Below are positions 1,348 to 35,635 of a stretch of 64,000 bases of DNA, in pieces. Below the pieces are notes generated by a model, which worked only from the letters and a program-made list of their open reading frames with translations, had not been told where the DNA came from and did no database searches. Source of the stretch: Marinomonas arctica (lineage in GTDB: Bacteria; Pseudomonadota; Gammaproteobacteria; Pseudomonadales; Marinomonadaceae); NCBI RefSeq assembly GCF_003259225.1, contig NZ_QHJF01000003.1:1-64000 (forward strand), read 5' to 3'. Made by a program: the position numbers and the translations under genes. The number at the start of each line of letters is the position of its first letter. Position 1 is the stretch's first letter.

Positions 1348-1552
1348 TTAATGTAAAATTTATGGTTTAACTTTAAACCCATCCCCCAGCTTAGGCAATA
1401 CGTTCAATCAGTACGCAAATGAAATGGTCTGTTTCTTAAGTAACGAAACCGGATGCTATAAACAGCCCAACTAACTTATTATTTGCACACATATTCACAG
1501 GGCAGTAAAATTGTGGACCATATAAATCACAAACAATGACAAGGATTTGTTT

Positions 1553-4456
1553 ATGACATACCGCCTGATTAAGCTGGAGAGCTTAATGGAGATGGAATTC
1601 TCTTCTGTGGAAGGCCGCTTGGAGCAAATAAACGAGCGTGACTTACATTCTATTCTCCCTAAAGGCATGAATGCTGCGGCGTTACTGGAGCAGGTGTCTG
1701 CCGGAGAATACGTTCTCTCTACCGACTTCCCCACAACGCCCTTACTTATTCGTCCAAGTAAAAATCTGGGTGCCAGCAGATGGGAAATCAACCCGGATGC
1801 CGAAGCTGGCTTTCAGCCCTCCGCGTTAACCGCCCTGACACAACGTCTTAATATGATGGGGCAAGGTTCCTCATCGGCCGCCTTCGACAATCATAACCGG
1901 GGCAATCTTCACCCCGCTAAAGAACCAGATTACACACCAGAACCTGTCGTGCCTGATCGAAGTTCCCGACCGCATCCAGCGCCGCTTGCTTACGAATACA
2001 ATATTGAAATCGCTTTTTCCGCCAAGAAACCGAGCCTCCCCGTGAATCTGAGTACCGAATTATTCGATACAAAAAATAAAATAGCAAAAGGTAATTGGAC
2101 CGCAAGCCCGCCCCCCCATGGCACAAAATACACCCTAAAAACCGACTCCAATGCGCCGCACAACTTGAACTTCCGTGCCACTCGAAACACCATGGGGCTT
2201 TCTCTAAAAAATGTCACCATGGTGCCATTAGGGTCTGGCAAGGTGAATGATGCCTTTATCCCCATTATGCCCACCGTGCAATTCGGCGAGCGTTTAGGTT
2301 TTGCCACCACAGGTTATCTTTACCATTTCAAAGGCAATACCCTCGTCCAAAAATACCAATGGCAAGGTGACGAAACCTTCAGTCCAATGCCTGATAACAT
2401 GGCCGATTACACCTTCCATCACGCCAGTATGTCATTGTTAGTGTATTGGAAAGTCGCCGGCAAAGTGGTGAAAGACCAATATCTAGTCTACCGAGCTGAG
2501 TCTCTGAGCAATACTGAATTAAACCAAGTCTCACCAGAATGGCTAGAACAACACGGTGTGCATTTAGACATCGACGCCTTATTAAAAGTCACCCAAACAC
2601 CGCTACTGGAAAGAGACAACTACGAAAAAGCAAACATTAAAGCCGACACCACGACCCATACCGTCATAGAAGACCCAAACACACAACAACGGGAAACCTG
2701 GGCAGACATTGCCAAACAATACGGTTTATCAGCCAAAGAACTGCTGAACCAAAACCACAGTTACCACGACAACCCACTGGCATTAAAAATCGGCGATACA
2801 TTAACCATTCAGCTTAGTGAAACGGAAAAGCCCGTGGTCTTTGATCGATTTGAATGCCCGCCAGAAGCGCCCAGCAAATACAACAACCCACACAACAGCC
2901 ACTATGTGAGTGATGAATCCAGCATCACCGTCACCAACAGCGCGCCCATTCTGACACTGGAAAAACGCAAAGTAAAAAAAGGCCTGCCGCTGGTCAACGT
3001 CAAACCCGAACGCATCTTACGCATCGGTGTGTTTTTTGATGGCACAGGACAAAACAATAGAAATGACACTTACAAAGAAGACAATGGCGATAAGTCCCGC
3101 TCCAACATCGCGCGACTGTTTGAGGCGTACCCAGAAAAGACAGGGGAATCCGCTAAGATCTATGTCTCGGGTGTTGGTACTCTAGATGGAGCGTGGCAAA
3201 CGCCAGAGGTGATTGATCGCGGTGAAGATGAAAGCAAACCGTCCAGCGCCATGGGCGTCTATGATGACAACGGTGCATTTCAGAAATGGCAGACTCTCCT
3301 AAAAGAATTAGAACGGATAAATACTGCACTACAATTAAATGGACAATATGAATACATAACCCATATCACTTTTGATGTGTTTGGCTTTAGTCGTGGCGCT
3401 GCCTTAGCACGACACTTTGTGAACGCGTTAAAAATGGGCTTACCTGACTACACCAAGACCAGAAACAGCAAAGACCTCAGTTCAGTGATGCCAAATTTAC
3501 TGAGCACAACACAAGGCGGCACCTATAACAGCCTATCGGGTTACCAAGTAGACAAGCAACGCTCTGCCAGTGTGCGCTTTTTGGGATTATTTGACACAGT
3601 GGGGTCATTTTACTTGCCCGGTGATAACCGCAATGGGCCTTTTCAACTGCATTTGAACTCCAAAGACGTTGGCAGAGCCTTTCAGATTTGTGCTCATCAT
3701 GAATACAGAATCAACTTTCCACTGTCCTCGTTAAAAACCAAAGGCAAATTACCGCCTAATTTTTATGAAGAGGTCTTCCCCGGTGCCCATACCGACGTGG
3801 GGGGCGGTTATCCCTTTATTAAGCAATACAAGAAAACCGATTTACCAGAGCATTATGGAATCCCCACGAACAATACCTATAATCGAGAGCTTATCAAAAC
3901 ACTATCTTATCAAGATCAAAAAGAGGAATACGCTTATAAAGGCAGGCTCGTGGACTTCGATAAGCTGTTTTATCAGGAACAGCAACGCCACCAAACAGAG
4001 TGGGAAGCAGAATGCAAAGCAACTTACGAACAACATGGCAAAGTAGAACAAGAAGACGCTGTCTTGTACTTTTACCGCCTACAACCTATTGATGCTAGTT
4101 TAGCCGGACTCGCACAAGAGCGCATGAAACAACAAGCACAAAGGTTTGGGGTTGAGTGGAATGATGATGCCTATGTAAAAGCTTTCGATGAACATGATTA
4201 CCATGATAGCTTTGCGCAAAATGATGTTTGGCCAATGTTAGCGAATCAAAAACTCGGTAGTATTACTCCTGAGCATTGGCAACGTTTACTTCCAATCGAT
4301 GCAGTGCATCGTTCTCACGATAAAGTTATCAATCCTGGCTGCGCTACGACACAAGATGAGCTAGTGGACGCTATCGCCAATCTGAAAGCATCTAAGCGCT
4401 ATCAGCCTGACGAACCAATCAAAACCCCAAACAGGGAAGTGTACGACAATGAATAA
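1553..4456 (+). CDS. Tle1-type (DUF2235) phospholipase effector with LysM domain
   Basis: A 967-residue protein. The ATG at 1553 has AAGGA 7 nt upstream and replaces an upstream TTG. A LysM-like segment spans about residues 370-421 (ending IGDTLTIQ). The DUF2235 alpha/beta hydrolase runs from about 486 (GVFFDGTGQNN) to 760, with nucleophile Ser613 in GFSRG, probable Asp681 in GLFDTVG and His746 in GAHTDVGGGY, a complete Tle1-type triad. The GxSxG form with Arg is typical of Tle1 phospholipases delivered by type VI secretion. The N-terminal 360 residues and the helical C-terminal 200 are not recognised. The adjoining lipoprotein gene overlaps by 8 nt and is the likely immunity partner. No VgrG, PAAR or T6SS structural gene is in the window, so secretion is inferred from family only. 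Confidence 0.82.
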   Translation: MTYRLIKLESLMEMEFSSVEGRLEQINERDLHSILPKGMNAAALLEQVSAGEYVLSTDFPTTPLLIRPSKNLGASRWEINPDAEAGFQPSALTALTQRLNMMGQGSSSAAFDNHNRGNLHPAKEPDYTPEPVVPDRSSRPHPAPLAYEYNIEIAFSAKKPSLPVNLSTELFDTKNKIAKGNWTASPPPHGTKYTLKTDSNAPHNLNFRATRNTMGLSLKNVTMVPLGSGKVNDAFIPIMPTVQFGERLGFATTGYLYHFKGNTLVQKYQWQGDETFSPMPDNMADYTFHHASMSLLVYWKVAGKVVKDQYLVYRAESLSNTELNQVSPEWLEQHGVHLDIDALLKVTQTPLLERDNYEKANIKADTTTHTVIEDPNTQQRETWADIAKQYGLSAKELLNQNHSYHDNPLALKIGDTLTIQLSETEKPVVFDRFECPPEAPSKYNNPHNSHYVSDESSITVTNSAPILTLEKRKVKKGLPLVNVKPERILRIGVFFDGTGQNNRNDTYKEDNGDKSRSNIARLFEAYPEKTGESAKIYVSGVGTLDGAWQTPEVIDRGEDESKPSSAMGVYDDNGAFQKWQTLLKELERINTALQLNGQYEYITHITFDVFGFSRGAALARHFVNALKMGLPDYTKTRNSKDLSSVMPNLLSTTQGGTYNSLSGYQVDKQRSASVRFLGLFDTVGSFYLPGDNRNGPFQLHLNSKDVGRAFQICAHHEYRINFPLSSLKTKGKLPPNFYEEVFPGAHTDVGGGYPFIKQYKKTDLPEHYGIPTNNTYNRELIKTLSYQDQKEEYAYKGRLVDFDKLFYQEQQRHQTEWEAECKATYEQHGKVEQEDAVLYFYRLQPIDASLAGLAQERMKQQAQRFGVEWNDDAYVKAFDEHDYHDSFAQNDVWPMLANQKLGSITPEHWQRLLPIDAVHRSHDKVINPGCATTQDELVDAIANLKASKRYQPDEPIKTPNREVYDNE

Positions 4457-5039
4457 AGTCCTATTAATCCTAACAACCTTATTCTTTCTCTCGGGATGCG
4501 AGGAAAAGCCCTTTTACGTGGCTAGTATCGGTAATGGCGGCAGCCTAGGTGGCCCTTATGTTATAGGGCCTATTAGTGTCGCCGATGTGTTAGGCGGCGG
4601 TGGCGGCTTTGGTTATGGTGCAGTCAATGGCTACCCGGGAGCCAGTGCCGACATTGGTCGTATGGGAGTCCCCAAACACATTGAAGGCTATTGGGCAAAA
4701 CAAAAACCAAATGCTAAGGGATATGTTGCCTTCTACCGAATTTCCGCCGATATAGACAGCGAGTTAGCGGAAAAAAAGATTCGTACTCTACTGAATTACT
4801 ACAAAAACTTCGATGAAGAAAATGGCTCAATGCAAGTACTGGTAGAGAGAGAGAGAGTACAAATTTTATACTCTTTATACTGCCCTTCTCATCGTAGGGA
4901 TTGTAGCGGTAAAGAAGGTGCCGACCCGAATGGTTGGGTGATTGATTCCCCGATAAAAGGTTTAGATGTCGTTGTTCTATTTGATGGCAAAGGTGAGATG
5001 TCACCCACCCCGTTCCCTGATTCGCCGTATGCAGATTAA
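4449..5039 (+). CDS. Putative Tle1 immunity lipoprotein
   Basis: A 196-residue protein with a lipoprotein signal peptide (lipobox LSGC, Cys17). After it come a Gly-rich stretch (GGGGGFGYG) and a mixed domain containing paired cysteines near residues 144 and 151. The start codon overlaps the stop of the lipase gene by 8 nt, so the two are translationally coupled. Tle phospholipases attack periplasmic leaflets, and their cognate immunity proteins are commonly outer-membrane or periplasmic lipoproteins encoded next door. The immunity role is inferred from context and the lipobox, not from a recognised domain (it resembles DUF3304-type neighbours in size and placement). Pieces of a second copy lie just downstream. 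Confidence 0.6.
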   Translation: MNKVLLILTTLFFLSGCEEKPFYVASIGNGGSLGGPYVIGPISVADVLGGGGGFGYGAVNGYPGASADIGRMGVPKHIEGYWAKQKPNAKGYVAFYRISADIDSELAEKKIRTLLNYYKNFDEENGSMQVLVERERVQILYSLYCPSHRRDCSGKEGADPNGWVIDSPIKGLDVVVLFDGKGEMSPTPFPDSPYAD

Positions 5040-27183: not shown

Positions 27184-27786
27184 ATGACGTTAAAAACATC
27201 CAAACAGCATCAAACCCGCTGCGCGTGGGCCAGTTCTGCGCCAGACTTTCCTGAATACCATGATCACGAATGGGGCTTTCCGGTTAGTAACGACCAGCGA
27301 TTATTTGAAAAGCTGTGTCTAGAGACTTTTCAGTCTGGACTAAGCTGGCGCACCATTTTAAGCAAACGTGACCATTTTCGTCTCGCTTTTCACCACTTTG
27401 ATTTTCATAAAGTGGCTCAATTTGGTGAAGAAGATGTAGCTAAATTACTGGATAACAAAGGCATAGTGCGGAATAAACGCAAAATCCTCGCCGTGATTAA
27501 CAACGCCAAACGCGCCCTAGAAATGGTCGAACAAGAAGGATCGTTAGCCACCTTCATCTGGCGCTACGAACCTGATGAAAACACCCTACCACCGCCCGAG
27601 ACCCAAACCACCTGCGTGGAATCCATTGCCCTTTCTAAAGAACTCAAAAAACGCGGCTGGCAATTCGTCGGCCCAACCACCATGTACGCCTTCATGCAAT
27701 CCATGGGACTCATCAACGACCATGCGGAAAACTGTTTTATGCGGGAAGAAATTGATCAGGCGAGGAAGGGGTTTGAGAGGCCGTAA
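27184..27786 (+). CDS. tag: DNA-3-methyladenine glycosylase I
   Basis: A 200-residue Tag protein with the family blocks RCAWASSAPDFPEYHDHEWG, LFEKLCLETFQSGLSWRTIL and KRDHFRLAFHHFDF, and the C-terminal zinc site GPTTMYAFMQSMGLINDHAENC with His and Cys ligands. It removes 3-methyladenine from alkylated DNA by hydrolysis of the N-glycosidic bond. The last 90 bp of this gene recur twice downstream (28.2 and 34.1 kb) as incomplete copies, marking a hot spot for inserted accessory genes. The copy here is intact with the tail MREEIDQARKGFERP. Confidence 0.92.
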   Translation: MTLKTSKQHQTRCAWASSAPDFPEYHDHEWGFPVSNDQRLFEKLCLETFQSGLSWRTILSKRDHFRLAFHHFDFHKVAQFGEEDVAKLLDNKGIVRNKRKILAVINNAKRALEMVEQEGSLATFIWRYEPDENTLPPPETQTTCVESIALSKELKKRGWQFVGPTTMYAFMQSMGLINDHAENCFMREEIDQARKGFERP

Positions 27787-27787
27787 A

Positions 27788-27814
27788 AGCACATCCTATC
27801 GAAGTCGATGTGCT
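27788..27814 (+). terminator. Terminator hairpin after tag
   Basis: The perfect 8-bp stem AGCACATC / GATGTGCT with a TATCGAAGTC-type loop is followed by CATTTTTG. It lies just after the tag stop and overlaps the end of the convergent antitoxin gene, so it could serve both. Confidence 0.7.
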
Positions 27815-28113
27815 CATTTTTGCGAATGAATCACGGCTTTCAAATCAAAATTAAGGGATTTAAGCACTTTTACTATTGTGTCAAATTGCGGCCGAGAACC
27901 GGATCGAAGGGCTTTATAAAGACTCTCACGCCCAAGCCCACTGTCTTTGGCTATCTGCGTCATGCCTCGTGCTTTGGCAATATGACCAAGCGCGTGAATC
28001 AGCTCGTCGGTATCCCCATCCTCAAGCACCATAGATAAGTAGGCGGCAATGTCTTCGTCGGTACGAAGCTGCTCAGCCATATCAAAGTTGGTCAGTTCTT
28101 TTATTGAAGTCAT
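27814..28113 (-). CDS. HigA-like addiction-module antidote protein (orphan)
   Basis: A 99-residue protein of the addiction module antidote family (TIGR02684-type). It has an N-terminal linker (TSIKELTNFDMAEQLRTDED), then a Xre/Cro-type helix-turn-helix (MTQIAKDSGLGRESLYKAL) and a short C-terminal strand (FDLKAVIHSQK). The partner RelE/HigB-type toxin normally lies directly upstream. On this strand that would be 28114-28440, which holds only a tag fragment and non-coding sequence, so the toxin has been lost or was never there. It may now act as an autonomous regulator or confer protection against related toxins. Confidence 0.78.
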   Translation of the reverse strand: MTSIKELTNFDMAEQLRTDEDIAAYLSMVLEDGDTDELIHALGHIAKARGMTQIAKDSGLGRESLYKALRSGSRPQFDTIVKVLKSLNFDLKAVIHSQK

Positions 28114-28226
28114 CTTGTCTCACCCAGTTTTGTAGTCCGCTGTTTTATCATACATAAAACAATTCGTATTCACTTAGATACGGCATGGTTATTTTTTAGC
28201 CTAACCTCAACGTTTTTTTTCCACCA

Positions 28227-28307
28227 TCATGCAGCCCATGTAATTCATTAACGACCATGTAGAACACTGTTTGATGCAGGAAGAAATTAATCGGGCGAGG
28301 GAAGGAG
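28227..28307 (+). repeat. Tag 3'-end fragment, copy 2
   Basis: Eighty bp resemble the tag 3' end (27692-27772): TCATGCAGCCCATG, then ATTAACGACCATGTAGAACA, and AGGAAGAAATTAATCGGGCG. An in-frame stop right after MQPM shows it is dead. The pattern of differences from the resident gene suggests it came with incoming DNA or decayed for long. It lies in the 335-bp gap between the antitoxin and the STAND gene, which is otherwise empty. Confidence 0.8.
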
Positions 28308-28448
28308 AGTAATAGACCAGTAAGAAAACGACACATAGGTTTTCTTTGGTATATACAAAATAAACGTTCACAGCCATTATTGTTCATTAATAATAAAAGG
28401 CCGCATTTGGTCGATGTCTTTATCTGATTATCAAAAGGGAAGTCCAAA

Positions 28449-31400
28449 ATGAGTCTAGCAGGAATCCGATCCAACCGTGGAGACGCATATCAAAGGTCTG
28501 TCGCTCTCTATTGGACGGTAAAGATGCTTCTAGATGAAAATATATCTGGAATACAAGTCGATGCGGTATCTACTCCTGACGACACAAAGCCTGTATACCA
28601 AGATGATATAATTATCTTATATAAAAATGGCGATAGAACATTTATTCAAGCAAAAATCAATCAAGCCAAGCACGAAGCATGGAAGCTAACAGATACCACT
28701 TTCATTAAAGAGCTTAAATCCTGCAAACTTCAGTTACTCTCAAAACCAAACTACGCAGTTCATTTCTATTCTCGTACACCGTTTGGTAGCTTTCAGCGTC
28801 TCATCGAAGAAAGCTCAATACATCCAGATTTAACAGCTTTTTTAAGAGATGCACCTCAAGGACAGAGAGATACTTTCGATGACATCAAAAAAATTTGGGA
28901 CATTGATGCAGCCACAGCATTATCATTGATAAAAAGGATTCAAATTGGCCCTCAAAATGGCTTATACGAATGGCAAGACCTAAGTCATGAGTTATTGAAG
29001 CCGACATTTCCAAGAGCAAATACAGCGCTTGAACTAATCTATAACTATGTAGATCATCAACATCTGCACCTTGCAGATCATAAAGTTGTTTTAGAGCGGC
29101 AAGACATTCTGGATATGCTGCGTGAACGTGGGATTCATCAAGCTGTCACCTTTAATGAAAGCAAATTGATACAGTCATTTCGCGACTTTTCAACCCAAGG
29201 TAGGCAATGGGTAAGAAGCATTGGTGGAGAAAAAATACTCAGAGAAGATCTGACTTTACTCAAACAAGCAATCGAGCAGAAAGTACCCTCAATTCTATTA
29301 GAAGATATAGCGGGTGGCGGAAAAACATGCCTTCTGCTTGATCTCATGGACGATCTGGATGAGCAAAAAGAAACTGTCTCTTTATTTATCAAAGGCGATA
29401 TTTTTGCATCCATCAATACATTAAAAGACTTAGAACAATATGGCTTGCCTAAAGACTTCATATCTCAATGCGCCTATTTGGCCAATAGAAGACATATCGT
29501 CATAGCAATAGATTCTCTTGATGTTTTGGCCGTGGGCAGAAGCCACAATAGCCTTAGATGTTTCTTAGGTATGATTGCAGGCTTATCCAAAATCCCGAAC
29601 ATTACTGTTGTTGCTGCTAGCCGTTCCTTTGATGCCAAATATGACCCTTTATTAAGAGAAATGAAATGGGGTGAAGTTATTTCAATTTCGCCTCTTTCGT
29701 TCAATGATAGCATTGCTCCATTATTTTATAAATGGGGCTATACCGTTAGTCAACTCAGCGACAAACTGAAAAACGTATTAGTAATTCCTCAAAACTTAAG
29801 ACTCTTTTATGAGCTATTACACAAAGGAATGACGATAGATGAGATTGGAGAGCATGACCTTTATGACATATATCTTCAAGAGCTTGTTGAAAAAGACGCC
29901 AATCTTGGGCAAGTTGTTCTGAATACGTTACAGGAAACGTCTCTTGGTTTATTAAAGCTGCGTAGTTATGAGTTCCAAAAAAGATCATTAGATGTTTCCC
30001 CTGATCAATTGCAATACCTATTAAGCAAACAGATTATTATGGAGGTAGGACCTAATCAGCTAATGTTTAGCCATCAAACATTAGCTGATGCGCTTCGAAT
30101 CAGACAAGCATTTCAGAATGGTACAACACTATTAGCGTTTTCTACATCGCAACCTCAACTCCCTTTCATTCGCCCTGCTGTCAGATCATTAATTCAAACA
30201 TTGAAAAATAGATCCCCGAAGCAATGCATTAGACAATTACGCGAATTCTTATTATCAGATAAAGTATCAATGCATTTAAAACGTCTCGCCGTAGAGACAT
30301 TAGCTGAAATGGAAGCGAGCGGACACGATATTGCATTAGTCATTACACTATCAAATCAGCACCCTCAATTATTCCGCCGCCTGTTAGAAAGAGCCAGCAG
30401 TGAAAGTTGGTTTCTACTTATTTATAATCAGCTAATTTCGAATATCGATGTAAAAAATCCACATAATCATTCCTATGCAATCATATATTTCCTATCAAAA
30501 TTTTTTAAAGGAAATGAAAATGAAATTATAAAAATATGGCATATAGCAATTGATGACGAATGGTTAAATATTAGAAATTTGAGTTGGTTAATATCATCTG
30601 AATTAGAAAAAAACAAAGTCTGGAACAATCTTGATTTAGATAGTCTATTGAAAAAGCTATTAGAACATAGTGAGGAAGATCACCCTAGCCTTGGCAAAAG
30701 CATTTGTCAGTATATAGAGGCTACAGGAAAAGGTGATCACCTATTATGGATGTATATCACTTTAAATACTAAGCCGATTAGTGAACTTGATGCTAGTAGC
30801 GAGCTAGAATTCAACTGCAATCCTCACGACTTTCTAACAGCAAACTATTTTGAAGAAAGACTCAAAGTTTCTGATGAACTATTTAATAGTGCTTTGGACT
30901 ACCTGCTTAGCGTTACACAAAGTAATAATTCAGATTTTTATGTAGATTTTTTAAAAAATACATCTTATGAAAAACGGCATACACACAGAGATATATATTT
31001 TGGTAGCTCTACCAGCAATTTTTTAAATGCTGTTGGAGAAGCTATGAAAAAACGATGTAATAAAAACGATGGTTGTTGGAAGAGTTTCGAACCTAAACTA
31101 AGAGTATGCGATGATCTCGGTCTAATTTATTTACTGATTGAATCCTACCACGAAAACATCATTGGAAATGTCTTAGGTATTTCTGCGCTCCTTACAAATA
31201 AAAACCTATTCAAATACGGTAACTTAGAGTTTGAATTAGGTACTCTAGCTCTTGCTGCTTATCCTTATATCTCTAATAAAACACGCGAAGAGCATCAGCG
31301 AAATATACTTAATCACTATGAGGATAAAGAACGTCAGGATTACTGGACTCTAAAGGGAATGTATGGAGACTTAATATGGGTTCCTGCCTCATATCGTCTA

Positions 31401-32954
31401 CCAGAGCTGTTTGACACTTTTGTCTTATGTGAAAGGCAGTATGGCACGCCTAACCTTCTTAGACAGCCAAATATTACTGGATGGTCAGGAACTGTTACAT
31501 CTCCCATATCAATAGATCAAATTTTAAACTTCTCTAGTGATGGTCTTGTGAATGTTTTGAAACATTACACTAATGAAAATGGTTTCTCTGACCATCTTCT
31601 TGGCGGCCTTAATAGTGTAGAGAGTGCATTAACTTCAGCAGCGACCCAAACACCTCTTAAGTTTATTCCTGTAGCGCACTTACTCTACCAATCAAGTTCT
31701 CCGATCAGCAGCATACTATCAATTATTGACGGAATAGCGTCCCATTTAAGTCATCGATTTGGCAATGTACAAACATCTAATTGGAAAGAGGTTCAACCTC
31801 TCCCTGACGGACAATCATTAGCTTTGGAGTTATTAAGTCTCGTTGAGCGTTACGGTAAACATGATTTTCGTAAATACTCTCACGCAAGAGCAATTCAAGC
31901 ATGTAGTCATATTTTAAAAGACGACCAGTCAGTTGAACGCTTGTGCTTTCAACTATGGCAACTTAGTACAAACCCTAACCCTAACCCTAATGAAGACAAT
32001 GAAACTGAATCCCTTGTCGGAAAAGGAATTAACTCAGTAAGAGGGGTTGCAGCAGAAACAGTATTAATAATATGCAATGATCGCTTAGAAAAACACAGAG
32101 AAATCACCTCCAGTTTAAAGCAACTTCTAACGCGCTTTGCCAAAGATGCCTCAATGGTAGTCAGAGCAACATTTTTGAGACGGTTTCCTTACTTTCTAAG
32201 TAAGAACTCAGAGTTCGGTTGGCAGCTGATTGATATTATTACGAAAAATGATTCATCAAGGTTGTTAAAACACCTCGAACAGATTCTGTACTATCAATAT
32301 CATGAGAACTTCGATTTAGTAGAACCATACCTTAATAAACTTAAGCTCATTAACGATAAAAAAAGTGCTGAAGCTTGGGGCAGGTTGGCGACGCTTTGTT
32401 ACTTGTCAGACTATATTTCTGAGGAAGATCTTTGGCATGACTTACCTCATCAAAATGAAGCGGCTAAAGAGGGTCTAGGGCAAGTACTGATAGCCAACTA
32501 TGCGAATAAAAAACATGCAAGTAAATGCTTAGAAGGACTAAAAAGACTTTTTGTGAATCAAGATTCCGAATCTATTTACTTTAAGTTTGAACGATCATTA
32601 AGTAACAAAAACGCCCTACACAGCGTTAGCTTAGAAACAATAAATTTATTCATTGAATACTCTACATCAGCCAAACCTAGGGAGATAGATGGAGTTTTTT
32701 ACTGGCTAGAAAAGAATGTGTTACATATGCCAAATGAAGTTCTAAACACTTTAGAAAAAGTAATCGAACGCTTTAGTGATGAAGCCGAGCCTGTACATTT
32801 TTCACAAAAAGAACCATTACTCTCCACCTTGAAATCACTTCTTCAAGAAGCCGATCTTAGCGATGACGAGGAATTCATTGATAGAGTGCTTGCTGCTCAG
32901 TATTGGTTCCTTGATAAAGGCGTTCAAGACATAGAGAAGCTGATCGAGCCATAG
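28449..32954 (+). CDS. Cap4-like nuclease fused to STAND NTPase with C-terminal repeats
   Basis: A 1501-residue protein. Residues about 5-220 resemble the Cap4/DUF4297 restriction-like nuclease: RSNRGDAYQRSVALYW, then Asp52/Asp53 in YQDDIIIL and Gln67-Ala-Lys69 in FIQAK, a D...QxK active site. Residues about 265-560 are a STAND/NACHT-type P-loop NTPase: Walker A EDIAGGGKT (Lys292), Walker B HIVIAIDSLD (Asp355), sensor VAASRSFD and helical WHD-like part. The remaining 900 residues are helical repeats, which in STAND proteins usually sense the trigger. Nuclease-STAND-repeat is the layout of Avs antiphage proteins, but I cannot place this in a named Avs class. It is AT-richer than neighbours and lies between tag fragments, so it is probably acquired. 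A run encoding NPNPNPNE interrupts the repeats. Confidence 0.72.
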   Translation: MSLAGIRSNRGDAYQRSVALYWTVKMLLDENISGIQVDAVSTPDDTKPVYQDDIIILYKNGDRTFIQAKINQAKHEAWKLTDTTFIKELKSCKLQLLSKPNYAVHFYSRTPFGSFQRLIEESSIHPDLTAFLRDAPQGQRDTFDDIKKIWDIDAATALSLIKRIQIGPQNGLYEWQDLSHELLKPTFPRANTALELIYNYVDHQHLHLADHKVVLERQDILDMLRERGIHQAVTFNESKLIQSFRDFSTQGRQWVRSIGGEKILREDLTLLKQAIEQKVPSILLEDIAGGGKTCLLLDLMDDLDEQKETVSLFIKGDIFASINTLKDLEQYGLPKDFISQCAYLANRRHIVIAIDSLDVLAVGRSHNSLRCFLGMIAGLSKIPNITVVAASRSFDAKYDPLLREMKWGEVISISPLSFNDSIAPLFYKWGYTVSQLSDKLKNVLVIPQNLRLFYELLHKGMTIDEIGEHDLYDIYLQELVEKDANLGQVVLNTLQETSLGLLKLRSYEFQKRSLDVSPDQLQYLLSKQIIMEVGPNQLMFSHQTLADALRIRQAFQNGTTLLAFSTSQPQLPFIRPAVRSLIQTLKNRSPKQCIRQLREFLLSDKVSMHLKRLAVETLAEMEASGHDIALVITLSNQHPQLFRRLLERASSESWFLLIYNQLISNIDVKNPHNHSYAIIYFLSKFFKGNENEIIKIWHIAIDDEWLNIRNLSWLISSELEKNKVWNNLDLDSLLKKLLEHSEEDHPSLGKSICQYIEATGKGDHLLWMYITLNTKPISELDASSELEFNCNPHDFLTANYFEERLKVSDELFNSALDYLLSVTQSNNSDFYVDFLKNTSYEKRHTHRDIYFGSSTSNFLNAVGEAMKKRCNKNDGCWKSFEPKLRVCDDLGLIYLLIESYHENIIGNVLGISALLTNKNLFKYGNLEFELGTLALAAYPYISNKTREEHQRNILNHYEDKERQDYWTLKGMYGDLIWVPASYRLPELFDTFVLCERQYGTPNLLRQPNITGWSGTVTSPISIDQILNFSSDGLVNVLKHYTNENGFSDHLLGGLNSVESALTSAATQTPLKFIPVAHLLYQSSSPISSILSIIDGIASHLSHRFGNVQTSNWKEVQPLPDGQSLALELLSLVERYGKHDFRKYSHARAIQACSHILKDDQSVERLCFQLWQLSTNPNPNPNEDNETESLVGKGINSVRGVAAETVLIICNDRLEKHREITSSLKQLLTRFAKDASMVVRATFLRRFPYFLSKNSEFGWQLIDIITKNDSSRLLKHLEQILYYQYHENFDLVEPYLNKLKLINDKKSAEAWGRLATLCYLSDYISEEDLWHDLPHQNEAAKEGLGQVLIANYANKKHASKCLEGLKRLFVNQDSESIYFKFERSLSNKNALHSVSLETINLFIEYSTSAKPREIDGVFYWLEKNVLHMPNEVLNTLEKVIERFSDEAEPVHFSQKEPLLSTLKSLLQEADLSDDEEFIDRVLAAQYWFLDKGVQDIEKLIEP

Positions 32955-33026
32955 AGTTTTCCACGATAAAAACACTGGCTCAAATGCAGGGTTCAGTGGG
33001 TTCTTTAGTTCATAAATATTGCTCAT
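32955..33026 (-). pseudogene. 5' stub of the AbiEi partner gene
   Basis: A frame starting with ATG 33026 overlaps the AbiEi gene's end by 17 nt and encodes MSNIYELKNPLNPAFEP then VFLSWKTLW, after which it runs into the reverse complement of the STAND gene's last codons. The overlap with the AbiEi-type gene is the spacing expected for the second gene of a type IV toxin-antitoxin operon (AbiEii-type nucleotidyltransferase). Only about 24 codons survive; the junction coincides with the STAND stop codon. Confidence 0.5.
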
Positions 33027-33996
33027 GTATCATCCTTGCGACTTCTATATTGCGGCTGTCCTTGCTCGCGGCTAATTCTGCAACGGCCAATAGTGCTTGG
33101 CTTGTTTCTGACCATGCTAATTTGTCGCCCCAAAAGGCTGGCACTAACCATAAATTGCCTTCTGGATTCGGGCGGCATTTAAGTTGGGCAAGTTTCTTTT
33201 GTAACGGCTGGCGGGTAAACAGCTGTAACTCCTGAGAATGAAGGTACTGGGTTAACTGTTCTGCTGCAACTTCTCCGCCCCAAAAGTCGTTCTCTTCCAT
33301 TGGTACATCTTTCCATTCGCCTTCTAACTGCAAACGAATTCCCCCTAACTTTGCTCTAATCGATAAACGATAAGATTCGATCCAAAGGCTTAACATTCGC
33401 TCTGTGTCCAGTATTCGTCTCGTATCCCCAAGGCTAATTAACGACTCAGCTTGAAGAATTCCCAAGCCTTTGCTCACCATGCCCAATGAAATATTGGCGT
33501 ATTCAGCAATCTCTCGGTATGACAAATTAAGCACTTCGGGTTTAGATAACAGCAAAAACAGTAACTTGGCAGCGCCTTCACCTAACTTGTTGTTTTTGTT
33601 GGTAAGGTTTATATCGTTCTGTGATGGATTAGGTTTTTTGGATTCAATCCAAATATGCAGAGCACCGTTGTTAATCCTCACATTGCCAGCAGTATCAATG
33701 AAGTTAACCTCATTTTCCATGCAAATGTCAGCTAAATAAGGCGTCAGGCGATTACAAATCAGTAACGTATTAGGGGCAGCATCAACCAGTAATGTGGTTA
33801 AACTTTCCTTGCGATGAATAGTTTTTACTGCAACATAGAAATGATATTCATCACCACTCATGGTTAAACACAATTCACCATCGGTAAAGCACTCACCGTT
33901 AATGCCCTCATTTTGGACGAAGTCCGCTTTAATATGGGCAGGCAGTATCGCCAACGCATTCACAGCCAATGCAGATTGTTTTGTCATCGTTGACAC
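33010..33996 (-). CDS. AbiEi-family antitoxin/regulator (type IV TA)
   Basis: A 328-residue protein of the AbiEi_2 kind (PF09952-like). An N-terminal domain holds the SLTTLLVDAAPNTLLICNRL block, with a winged-helix region at about 150-195 (YREIAEYANISLGMVSKGLG) and a C-terminal domain ending ARMIHEQYL. AbiEi antitoxins repress the operon and counter the AbiEii nucleotidyltransferase toxin. The GTG at 33996 has AGAG 9 nt upstream; an ATG 9 bases downstream is an alternative. Its normal partner is reduced to a stub at its 3' side, so the pair is not functional as a TA system, although repression may persist. Confidence 0.72.
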   Translation of the reverse strand: MSTMTKQSALAVNALAILPAHIKADFVQNEGINGECFTDGELCLTMSGDEYHFYVAVKTIHRKESLTTLLVDAAPNTLLICNRLTPYLADICMENEVNFIDTAGNVRINNGALHIWIESKKPNPSQNDINLTNKNNKLGEGAAKLLFLLLSKPEVLNLSYREIAEYANISLGMVSKGLGILQAESLISLGDTRRILDTERMLSLWIESYRLSIRAKLGGIRLQLEGEWKDVPMEENDFWGGEVAAEQLTQYLHSQELQLFTRQPLQKKLAQLKCRPNPEGNLWLVPAFWGDKLAWSETSQALLAVAELAASKDSRNIEVARMIHEQYL

Positions 33997-34079
33997 TGTT
34001 GTTCACTCTTCATATTCGTTCATGATTCATGAACAAACTATATCTATGAACGTCAAATAATACAAATGTCTTTTCACCC

Positions 34080-34135
34080 TCATGCAATCCATGGAACTCA
34101 TCAACGGCCATGCGAAAAACAGTGTTGTGTGGGGA
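34080..34135 (+). repeat. Tag 3'-end fragment, copy 3
   Basis: TCATGCAATCCATGGAACTC, then ATCAACGGCCATGCGAAAAA and CAGTGTTGTG, match tag at 27692-27745. It is the copy most like the resident gene at its start but decays after about 55 bp. It ends the island that began after tag. The surrounding gap (33997-34336) also holds the AbiEi promoter and the promoter of the second BdlA-like gene; nothing else is visible. Confidence 0.8.
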
Positions 34136-34336
34136 AACATCGATTAAGTCAGAAGAAAAATTAAACGGTGATAAATCATTACACAATTGCATAAAAACTT
34201 ACCACATCAGTACGCAAATTCTCATGAGTTAAGCCACACTCTAGAGATAGTATTTTTAATACCACAAGAGTTTTGAATTGTTCGCATAAAACGCTCGATG
34301 TTTAACAATGACTGCTCATTATCAAGGATAGCCAAC

Positions 34337-35635
34337 ATGATTTTCGGTAAAAAAATAGATAAACAATCTGACATTGAAATCAAACTTCAACAGTTAAAAC
34401 AATGCCAAGATGAGTTAAACGCCATTAAGCAAAATACCGCGAGTATCAGCTTTAGTCCTGAGGGTGTGATATTGGATGCTAACCCACTGTTCTTAGATGC
34501 GGTAGGTTATAAACTAGAGCAAATCATTGGGCAGCATCACCGTATTTTTTGCGATACCGAGTACACACAGTCCGTTGACTACAAGCAATTCTGGCATGGG
34601 CTAAAGGCAGGAAAATCCTTCAAGGGTACTTTTTTACGTTTCAAGCAAAACAAACAACCTATTTTTTTAGAAGCCAGCTATTTTCCAGTGTGTGATGAAA
34701 ATGGTCAGGTCACTAAAGTGCTTAAAATAGCCAATGACATCACCGAAATACAAGCATCCTTGGCAAACAAAAATGCCGTTTTGACAGCGTTAGACCGATC
34801 ACTTGCCGTCATAGAGTTTGACACTAAAGGCAATATACTTCATGCCAACAGCAATTTTTTACGCGCTATGAAATACGATGAACAAGACATTAAAGGCAAA
34901 CATCATAAGATCTTTTGTGATGAAAAATTTTACCGAGAAACCCCCAGTTTCTGGTCTGATTTAGCACGTGGCAAACACTTCTCTGGACGTTTCCAGCGTT
35001 TTGATGGCACAGGCAAAACGATCTGGCTAGAAGCCACCTATAACCCCATATTTGATGAAAAAGGTCGCGTTTATAAGGTTATCAAGTTTGCGTCTGACAT
35101 TACGGAACGAGTCAATAATGCCATGAATGCGATTGAACTGGCTGCTGCGACATCGGAAGAAACGAGCCAAGTTTCATCCAATGCCGTCGAAATATTAAAC
35201 GCATCCGTACAAACATCAAAAGAGATTGCGGAAAAAGTAAAACATGCCGCCGATATCGGCAATTTACTAAAAACACAATCTAAAAGTATTTCCGACATTG
35301 TTGTTACCATTCGCGCTATTGCTGACCAGACGAATTTACTCGCGCTCAATGCCGCCATTGAAGCAGCACGCGCGGGCGATGCGGGACGAGGTTTCTCTGT
35401 TGTTGCAGATGAAGTCCGAAAGTTAGCCAGTAATACCGCTATCGCTACGGCAGAAATAGGTCAGGTTGTCGAAAAAAACCATAATTTAATCAATGAAATG
35501 GACGTGATGCTGAACTCCGTAACAGGCATCGCCTTGCACGGCCAAGAAAGTATTAACGAAGTGTCGCGAGGCCTAATGGAAATTACATCCGGTGTAGCAA
35601 GATTCGTCGAAATGGTTGATAAAATGAAGAATTAA
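34337..35635 (+). CDS. BdlA-like soluble PAS-PAS-MCP protein (paralogue)
   Basis: A 432-residue paralogue of the 14.2-kb protein with the same order: PAS at about 30-145 and 150-265, then signalling domain ([21 protein letters not shown]). The GQHHRIFCD and GKHHKIFCD segments and [12 protein letters not shown] blocks are shared. The ATG at 34337 has AAGGA 8 nt upstream; an ATG at 34298 gives an extension the paralogue lacks. It lies directly after the tag island, so the position may be ancestral and only the island new. Two such receptors in one 20-kb stretch suggests duplicate sensing of oxygen or redox. Confidence 0.83.

What the first reader, a model, noticed from the sequence alone, without database searches (positions are those of the whole stretch)
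28449..32954. Candidate antiphage protein: Cap4-like nuclease fused to a STAND NTPase
The order nuclease, P-loop NTPase, long helical repeats is that of Avs pattern-recognition defence proteins. The nuclease has a D...QxK site and the Walker motifs are intact. It is AT-rich and lies in a likely defence hot spot. I could not place it in a described Avs class, so it may be a new branch.
Basis: partly seen in the sequence, partly recalled or inferred. Interest (0 to 1): 0.8.

Follow-up and report, generated by a model that had tools for sequence, protein, structure and literature searches.

The report
Divergent Avs-like DNase–STAND antiphage protein
This gene encodes a large bacterial protein that most likely senses phage infection with a long helical arm and then uses an ATP-driven switch to turn on a DNA-cutting domain; it is a very divergent member of a family that resembles known Avs defences in structure but falls outside their described types.

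Summary
Window 28449-32954 is one intact 1501-codon gene: Cap4-type nuclease (D52...Q67xK69), STAND NTPase, and about 940 residues of alpha-solenoid. Its own Pfam hits are sub-threshold, but 26 aligned relatives and an AlphaFold model support the domains. The top solved folds for residues 1-640 are Avs3 and Avs4, then NLRP3. A full-length homologue is solved (PDB 9n00, E 3.6e-175), so the family is not unseen; yet no Avs model hits at E up to 1 and the sensor half models as a HEAT-like solenoid. Full-chassis relatives are scattered over four phyla. In cyanobacteria the chassis can carry DNase plus caspase, caspase with a dead DNase remnant, caspase alone, or a phosphorylase. The gene lies between degenerate copies of the tag 3' end beside broken toxin-antitoxin pairs; the nearest congener has an empty site and two congeners keep a 90-bp remnant. 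Most likely it works like an Avs protein: infection-triggered, ATP-dependent abortive DNase. The trigger is unknown. It has lost 17 of 93 otherwise invariant residues, so weakened function is possible.

The parts
28449..32954 (+). Avs-like Cap4-STAND-alpha-solenoid protein, 1501 aa
   Evidence: ORF; full-length homologue 9n00; 26 aligned relatives
28449..28970 (+). Cap4-type PD-(D/E)xK-like nuclease effector, residues 1-174
   Evidence: Pfam Cap4_nuclease E 0.001, sub-threshold; LmuA hits in 3 of 6 proteins given, all relatives; region replaced or decayed in caspase- and phosphorylase-bearing relatives
28602..28655 (+). D52...Q67-A-K69, presumed catalytic site
   Evidence: D52, Q67, K69 invariant in the 23-row alignment A4
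29241..29828 (+). STAND NTPase core, about residues 265-460
   Evidence: AF2 model pLDDT 85.9; Foldseek to Avs3/4, NLRP3, NOD2, NLRC4; AAA in 22 of 23 and NACHT in 14 of 23 family members at E up to 0.1
29304..29327 (+). P-loop DIAGGGKT (residues 286-293); PGSGKT in 26 of 26 relatives
29508..29522 (+). Walker B IDSLD (residues 354-358)
29829..30128 (+). winged-helix-like region with the conserved HQ motif, about residues 461-560
   Evidence: secondary structure of the model; H542 in 26 of 26 relatives, Q543 in 25 of 26; the name winged helix is an inference
30126..32951 (+). C-terminal HEAT-like alpha-solenoid, presumed sensor, residues 560-1501
   Evidence: AF2; Foldseek top 50 led by karyopherins, CAND1 and SF3b-type solenoids
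27689..27770 (+). 3' end of tag, reference copy of the repeat
28224..28305 (+). degenerate copy of the tag 3' end, left flank of the insert (80%)
34077..34158 (+). degenerate copy of the tag 3' end, right flank of the insert (74%)
33010..33996 (-). orphan AbiEi-type antitoxin/regulator; AbiEii partner not here, present in congeners G428 and G430
   Evidence: Pfam AbiEi_2 1.4e-18
27814..28113 (-). orphan HI1420-type antidote; toxin-like partner not here, present in congeners G025 (Pfam Gp49) and G026 (by eye)
   Evidence: Pfam 2.1e-43
27184..27786 (+). tag, DNA-3-methyladenine glycosylase, left boundary gene of the variable site
34298..35635 (+). PAS-MCP protein, right boundary gene of the variable site

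Best explanation
A single-gene, Avs-like (NLR-like) antiphage protein. The resting protein is held off by its NTPase module. The C-terminal HEAT-like solenoid binds a protein made during phage infection; ATP exchange and oligomerisation through the STAND module then bring the N-terminal Cap4-type nuclease domains together, and they cut phage and host DNA, ending the infection at the cost of the cell. Shown: gene, domains, motif conservation, fold kinship with Avs3/4 and NLRs, patchy distribution, exchange of the killing domain on a constant NTPase-sensor chassis, location in a variable site with TA genes. Inferred: acting alone, phage trigger, oligomerisation, DNA cutting, abortive outcome. 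It works like an Avs protein; I do not file it under Avs1-5.
For: Intact 1501-aa frame. Full-length solved homologue 9n00 (family profiles 8.5e-246 and 0). Foldseek ranks 1-4 are Avs3-terminase and Avs4-portal, then NLRP3 (5), NOD2 (7), NLRC4 (10), EfAvs5 (11). Nuclease site and NTPase residues conserved. Effector exchange in relatives: caspase (L077, L080, L090, L092) and phosphorylase (L101). No neighbour group shared by more than 3 of 27 loci (ORFs of 90 aa or more within 6 kb; several contigs are cut on one side), consistent with a solitary gene; of ten neighbours chosen by me two are WYL regulators, four HipA, ParE, PIN or Fic, three phage integrases, one without hit. Rare: full-length in 1 of 48 genomes of the genus, its own; any match at E up to 0.001 in 4 of 369 genomes of the class, own included. 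One relative on an IMG/VR contig.
Against: No experiment and no known trigger. The window protein differs at 17 of 93 columns invariant in the others, the most of 21 rows scored (next L089, 10 of 86), though rows with close sisters are favoured in that count. Long branch of 1.73. Two congeners keep only remnants. No relative in 50,697 phage records. Fold evidence is not exclusive: TM-scores to Avs3/4 are 0.25-0.32, lower than to NOD2 or NLRC4 (0.41-0.42), and ordinary AAA+ ATPases (ORC, FtsH, NSF) also rank from place 6 on. C-terminal model pTM 0.53, TM-scores to the query 0.14-0.31 for the 50 matches shown.
Confidence: 0.72

Rival explanations
1. Same defence architecture, but indirect sensing: the solenoid guards a host factor (as bNACHT25 uses DnaJ) or senses damage, and does not bind a phage protein.
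For: bNACHT25, a bacterial NLR-related protein with a nuclease effector, needs host DnaJ, and the coat protein that activates it did not bind it directly (PMC12169576, passages seen). The sensor half here matches general HEAT solenoids; no Avs structure is in the Foldseek top 50 shown.
Against: The top folds of the switch half, Avs3 and Avs4, are solved bound to terminase and portal (titles).
Confidence: 0.25
2. A decaying or attenuated copy: still open, but with a weakened NTPase or nuclease.
For: 17 of 93 otherwise invariant residues changed, seven of them within residues 265-460, among them P288A, S290G and C391S; long branch; 90-bp remnants in two congeners; both neighbouring TA pairs lack their toxin.
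Against: No stop in 1501 codons; K292, T293, Walker B and the D...QxK site are kept; GC by codon position 0.48/0.33/0.31 looks coding.
Confidence: 0.15
3. A non-defence STAND regulator or stress-response protein.
For: Its Cap4 and NTPase profile scores are below curated cut-offs when scanned alone; many ordinary AAA+ ATPases are among the fold matches.
Against: Nuclease, caspase or phosphorylase as exchangeable effectors; Avs folds lead the list; patchy distribution and TA- or integrase-type neighbours in several relatives.
Confidence: 0.05
4. A two-gene system with the neighbouring AbiEi protein (33010-33996).
For: Both lie inside the same repeat-bounded insert.
Against: AbiEi occurs without the large gene between tag and the MCP gene in G428 and G025 and about 8 kb downstream of tag in G430, and is followed by AbiEii in G428 and G430; no partner recurs in more than 3 of 27 loci; the two genes are convergent.
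Confidence: 0.04

Closest known systems
PDB 9n00 / 9n01 / 9yix ('AAA family ATPase', 1523 aa)
   Same: Homologous over query residues 1-1496 (E 3.6e-175); same D...QxKKNQ-type motif and STAND core.
   Different: About 32% identical over 616 N-terminal columns; 82% to Edaphovirga L099 and 76% to viral-contig L106 over its first 604 residues; in a separate starred clade with them and the Methylobacter-type relatives. No held paper names 9N00 or 9N01; its function and partner are unknown to me. T7 terminase, T7 portal and lambda terminase queries did not list these entries.
Avs3 (8dgc) and Avs4 (8dgf)
   Same: Foldseek ranks 1-4 for residues 1-640, probability 1.00; nuclease-STAND-helical order (order in Avs3/4 recalled).
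   Different: 11-13% identity; not reached by sequence or profile at E up to 10; not in the top 50 shown for the C-terminal half.
Avs5 (Sir2-STAND, 9jap)
   Same: STAND module, rank 11.
   Different: NADase effector; TPR or Sel1-like repeats in the sensor (PMC12931631, passages).
bNACHT25 / bNACHT32 (clade 6 bacterial NLR-related)
   Same: N-terminal PD-(D/E)xK DNase, central STAND NTPase (PMC12169576, passages).
   Different: NACHT module; the window protein gives no NACHT hit at E up to 1, 14 of 23 family members give one at E up to 0.1. No direct comparison made.
Cap4 / LmuA nuclease effectors
   Same: L106, L075 and L080 hit LmuA in PADLOC, 3 of 6 proteins given; the window and L099 do not at E up to 0.01. 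The window hits Pfam Cap4_nuclease weakly.
   Different: Here fused to a STAND switch; Pfam lists no SAVED domain in the window protein. An SMC-type partner was not searched for.

Membership tests
AVAST (Avs1-5) | Effector - STAND NTPase - repeat sensor in one protein | tested here: met
AVAST (Avs1-5) | Match to a profile of a described Avs type | tested here: not met
   No Avs model at E up to 1 in PADLOC or NCBIfam. Existence of the NCBIfam Avs2 model is shown; that the libraries hold models for the other types is recalled
AVAST (Avs1-5) | Sequence similarity to solved Avs3/Avs4 | tested here: not met
   8dgc and 8dgf absent from all hits at E up to 10 with the single protein and two family profiles
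AVAST (Avs1-5) | Fold similarity to Avs3/Avs4 in the effector-NTPase half | tested here: met
   Ranks 1-4, E 4.8e-16 to 5.9e-12, but TM-scores 0.25-0.32 with rmsd 20-23 A over the whole alignment
AVAST (Avs1-5) | Sensor half of the Avs type | tested here: inconclusive
   Other helical solenoids fill the 50 matches shown of 1157; pTM 0.53
AVAST (Avs1-5) | Activation by phage terminase or portal | not testable with these tools
   needs co-expression or binding assays
STAND NTPases | P-loop GKT, Walker B and conserved arginine | tested here: met
   with P288A, S290G and C391S in the window copy
STAND NTPases | Winged helix after the NTPase | tested here: inconclusive
   suggested by the secondary structure of the model and by NLR matches; not compared on its own
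Cap4-type nuclease | Curated Pfam cut-off reached | tested here: not met
   19.7 bits against 26.2; Cap4 listed for 5 of 23 members at E up to 0.1
Cap4-type nuclease | D...QxK site | tested here: met
Family of PDB 9n00 | Full-length alignment through all three regions | tested here: met

The most novel reading that the evidence does not exclude
The protein belongs to an undescribed AVAST-like class with its own karyopherin-like HEAT sensor that recognises something other than terminase or portal. The class keeps its switch and sensor while exchanging the killing domain, and cyanobacterial members record the exchange step by step: DNase, DNase plus caspase, caspase with a catalytically dead DNase remnant, caspase alone.
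Probability: 0.4. Interest if true: 0.65.

Novelty: new variant of a known kind. Interest (0 to 1): 0.47.

Why it matters
If true, it adds a further NLR-like immune receptor class in bacteria, outside the five Avs types, with a different sensor. Its relatives would show how one receptor chassis swaps DNase for caspase, a question shared with animal and plant NLRs. A solved relative (9n00) should make mechanism and trigger testable now.

Tried and rejected
The genome-contig scan with the single window protein found no relative. Papers naming 9N00 or 9N01: 0 in the held library; 9YIX was not searched. Further literature searches gave context; their listings, read by title and start of abstract, showed no description of this family. 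Collections: no phage hit; nine plasmid records with the window protein, five covering at least 80%; five with L106; no E. coli hit with 3990 bases of L106 DNA (proteins cannot be searched there). Terminase and portal queries, to see whether 9n01 or 9yix hold such a partner chain: negative for the three proteins tried; other phage proteins were not tried. Promoter scan: one 10-of-12 site at 28367-28394, but the region has fewer sites than shuffles (9 against 18.6), so it says nothing. Matches in three more congeners at E 0.089-0.169 were taken as chance. AbiEi as partner: rejected. No tool named the genus; from recall, composition and gene set suggest Shewanella, untested.

Rows dropped: of 31 genome loci and 1 viral locus 26 were aligned. 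L093 (part of the frame only), L095 and L102 (frame broken) and L103-L105 (similarity over about residues 261-783 only) were left out; L103 and L104 served as outgroup. The structure alignments used 22 and 23 relatives.

Full report
Observation. Window 28449-32954 (+) is a single ATG-started frame of 1501 codons. Under its own base composition the chance of staying open that long is 2.4e-47; its GC is 37.3% against 44.7% for the window.

Domains. Scanned alone, the protein gives only sub-threshold Pfam hits: Cap4_nuclease (E 0.001, residues 4-91), MerR_1 (0.057) and nSTAND_NTPase5 (0.26). Family evidence is stronger. phmmer against the PDB finds a full-length homologue, 9n00_A (1523 aa, E 3.6e-175, query 1-1496; same sequence in 9n01 and 9yix), named only 'AAA family ATPase'. 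A second scan of species genomes, with alignment A3, gave 31 loci from Cyanobacteriota, Thermodesulfobacteriota, Bacteroidota and Pseudomonadota and, for a region around the NTPase only, Planctomycetota; one more lies on an IMG/VR contig. I aligned 26 of these 32. In the 23-row alignment of residues 1-640, D52, Q67 and K69 are invariant. Of the 23 members, 22 match AAA, 19 nSTAND_NTPase5, 14 NACHT and 5 Cap4 at E up to 0.1. Conservation of the P-loop GKTC is partly imposed, since the scans used peptide patterns that contain it.

Structure. AlphaFold of residues 1-640 has pLDDT 85.9 and pTM 0.80. Foldseek against the PDB (entries to 2026-04-08) ranks Avs3-terminase 8dgc and Avs4-portal 8dgf in places 1-4 (E 4.8e-16 to 5.9e-12, probability 1.00), then NLRP3 (5), NOD2 (7), NLRC4 (10) and EfAvs5 (11). 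Against too strong a reading: whole-alignment TM-scores to Avs3/4 are 0.25-0.32, lower than to NOD2 and NLRC4 (0.41-0.42), and ordinary AAA+ ATPases (ORC, FtsH, NSF) also rank from place 6 on. Shifted domains may explain the low TM-scores (inference). 9n00 is not in the 50 shown; perhaps it was released after that copy (inference). Residues 560-1501 model as helices almost throughout (pLDDT 83.5, pTM 0.53); the 50 matches shown of 1157 are led by HEAT-type solenoids such as RanBP5, importin beta and CAND1, with low TM-scores (0.14-0.31 by query length); none is an Avs protein.

Relation to Avs. No Avs model appears for the window protein at E up to 1 in PADLOC, where its only hit is the candidate family PDC-M54A (E 1.3e-10), or in NCBIfam; the NCBIfam Avs2 model exists (NF041813), the others are recalled. 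Profiles of the two halves of the family do not reach 8dgc or 8dgf at E up to 10. So it works like an Avs protein by order of parts and fold, but fails the sequence tests for the described types.

Effector exchange. Of the 26 aligned relatives, 21 carry the Cap4 domain alone. L077 and L080 carry a caspase in front of a Cap4 domain in which the second of the two acidic residues is N (MDN) but QxK is kept. L090 carries a caspase and a shortened Cap4 remnant with NN in place of DD and without the QxK lysine. L092 has a caspase and no Cap4. L101 has a phosphorylase instead. Pfam confirms Peptidase_C14 in L080, L090 and L092 and PNP_UDP_1 in L101; L077 was judged by eye. The AGHG and DCC motifs, presumed (from recall) to hold the caspase His and Cys, are present in all four. 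In the tree L077, L080 and L090 group together (95/93) and L092 sits elsewhere in the cyanobacterial clade, with L076 (82/88), so the steps need not be one line of descent. PADLOC finds both caspase and LmuA in L080. Plasmid copies in Nostoc carneum, Microchaete and Tolypothrix match the window only from residue 175; that of Nostoc sp. MS1 matches throughout.

The window copy. It differs at 17 of 93 columns invariant in the other rows (L101 left out), more than any of the 21 rows scored (next L089 with 10 of 86, L082 with 7 of 83); rows with close sisters are favoured in such a count. Seven of the 17 lie within residues 265-460, among them P288A, S290G and C391S. Its branch is 1.73 changes per column and its place beside the cyanobacterial clade (82/92) is not secure. 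K292, T293, D355, D358, D52, Q67 and K69 are kept. Weakened function is possible.

Distribution. Full-length in 1 of 48 genomes of the genus, its own, with short remnants in two more (G005, G012). Any match at E up to 0.001 in 4 of 369 genomes of the class, own included; with the profile, 5 of 398 in the phylum at E up to 1e-10, own included, two of them matching around the NTPase only. None in 50,697 phage records or, at DNA level with L106, in E. coli.

Locus. An 82-bp stretch of the tag 3' end occurs three times: in tag (27689), at 28224 (80%) and at 34077 (74%). The last two bracket this gene and an AbiEi gene. I fetched 26 congener loci with a window-type tag (two of them cut short by a contig end). 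The nearest by tag identity, G431, has one such copy and no insert: window 27208-28283 and 34071 onward align to G431 with a 67-bp overlap. An MCP gene at least 79% identical to the window's follows tag within 5 kb in 9 of the 26; 7 of those 9 have extra tag-end copies, and in the other two (G423, G018) tag and MCP lie about 150 bp apart with no insert; G005 and G012 have partial copies of about 40 bp. AbiEi homologues occur in 3 of the 26: between tag and MCP in G428 and G025, and about 8 kb downstream of tag in G430. In G428 and G430 AbiEii follows (E 2.1e-4 and 7.9e-5; only G430's exceeds the Pfam cut-off); it is missing here, and similarity to G428 starts at about 32970, just after the large gene's stop. 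The HI1420 antidote lacks the toxin-like gene that G025 (Gp49, E 2.4e-6) and G026 (by eye) keep. The remnants in G005 and G012 hold codons 181-209 (73 and 75 of 87 bases identical to the window), near the 82-83% of the flanking tag-side DNA: the gene was probably at this site in a common ancestor and was lost there (inference). No ORF of 100 aa or more in the insert other than the two genes and one frame on the opposite strand inside the large gene was listed, so no integrase is evident.

Neighbours elsewhere. Among 27 loci no neighbour group spans more than 3 (ORFs of 90 aa or more within 6 kb; some contigs end close by), consistent with a gene that acts alone. Of ten neighbours chosen for Pfam, nine matched: WYL (L085, L091), HipA (L083), ParE (L094), PIN (L098), Fic (L097) and phage integrases (L099, L078, L086); L081 did not. 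The choice was mine and favours suggestive ones.

Mechanism. STAND proteins are described with an N-terminal effector, a central NTPase and a C-terminal sensor; Avs1-3 respond to terminase and Avs4 to portal, with nuclease effectors of Avs1-4 cutting both genomes (PMC12724215 and PMC12931631, passages seen). bNACHT25, also with a nuclease, senses through host DnaJ (PMC12169576, passages). Displacement of one effector domain by another is described in other bacterial conflict systems (PMC7159879, passages). I therefore expect an infection-triggered, ATP-dependent DNase; the trigger and whether binding is direct remain open.

Verdict. A real, intact, highly divergent member of an Avs-like family that has a solved relative for which I found no paper. 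New variant of a known kind.

Noticed in passing
L077, L080, L090, L092 (cyanobacteria), coordinates in the script: A graded series: caspase plus Cap4 nuclease in one STAND protein, caspase plus decayed nuclease remnant, caspase alone.
   Followed up: partly
L101 5890-10773: Synechococcales relative with a nucleoside-phosphorylase-type effector on the same chassis.
   Followed up: partly
window 27689-28305 and 34077-34158: Degenerate copies of the tag 3' end accompany inserts between tag and the MCP gene in 7 of 9 congeners with that gene order; no recombinase is evident there, so how it spreads is unexplained.
   Followed up: partly
G005:C22:17883-17975 and G012:C24:539421-539516 (L003, L002): Remnants of about 90 bp (codons 181-209) of the same gene at the same site in two congeners.
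   Followed up: yes
window 27814-28113 and 33010-33996: Two orphan antitoxins (HI1420-type and AbiEi) whose partners are present in congeners.
   Followed up: yes
window 1547-4456 and 4449-5039: T6SS Tle1-like phospholipase effector domain (PF09994, E 1.3e-22), followed by a 196-aa protein without Pfam match at E up to 1e-5, possibly its immunity protein (guess).
   Followed up: no
L085 7072-7995 and L091 7080-7982: WYL-domain regulators directly upstream of the relative in two Thiotrichaceae; a paper title in a search listing (PMC9122601) reports such regulators beside diverse phage defence systems.
   Followed up: partly
L007 6001-11826: Nostoc sp. MS1 plasmid copy is split by an IS630 element.
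   Followed up: no
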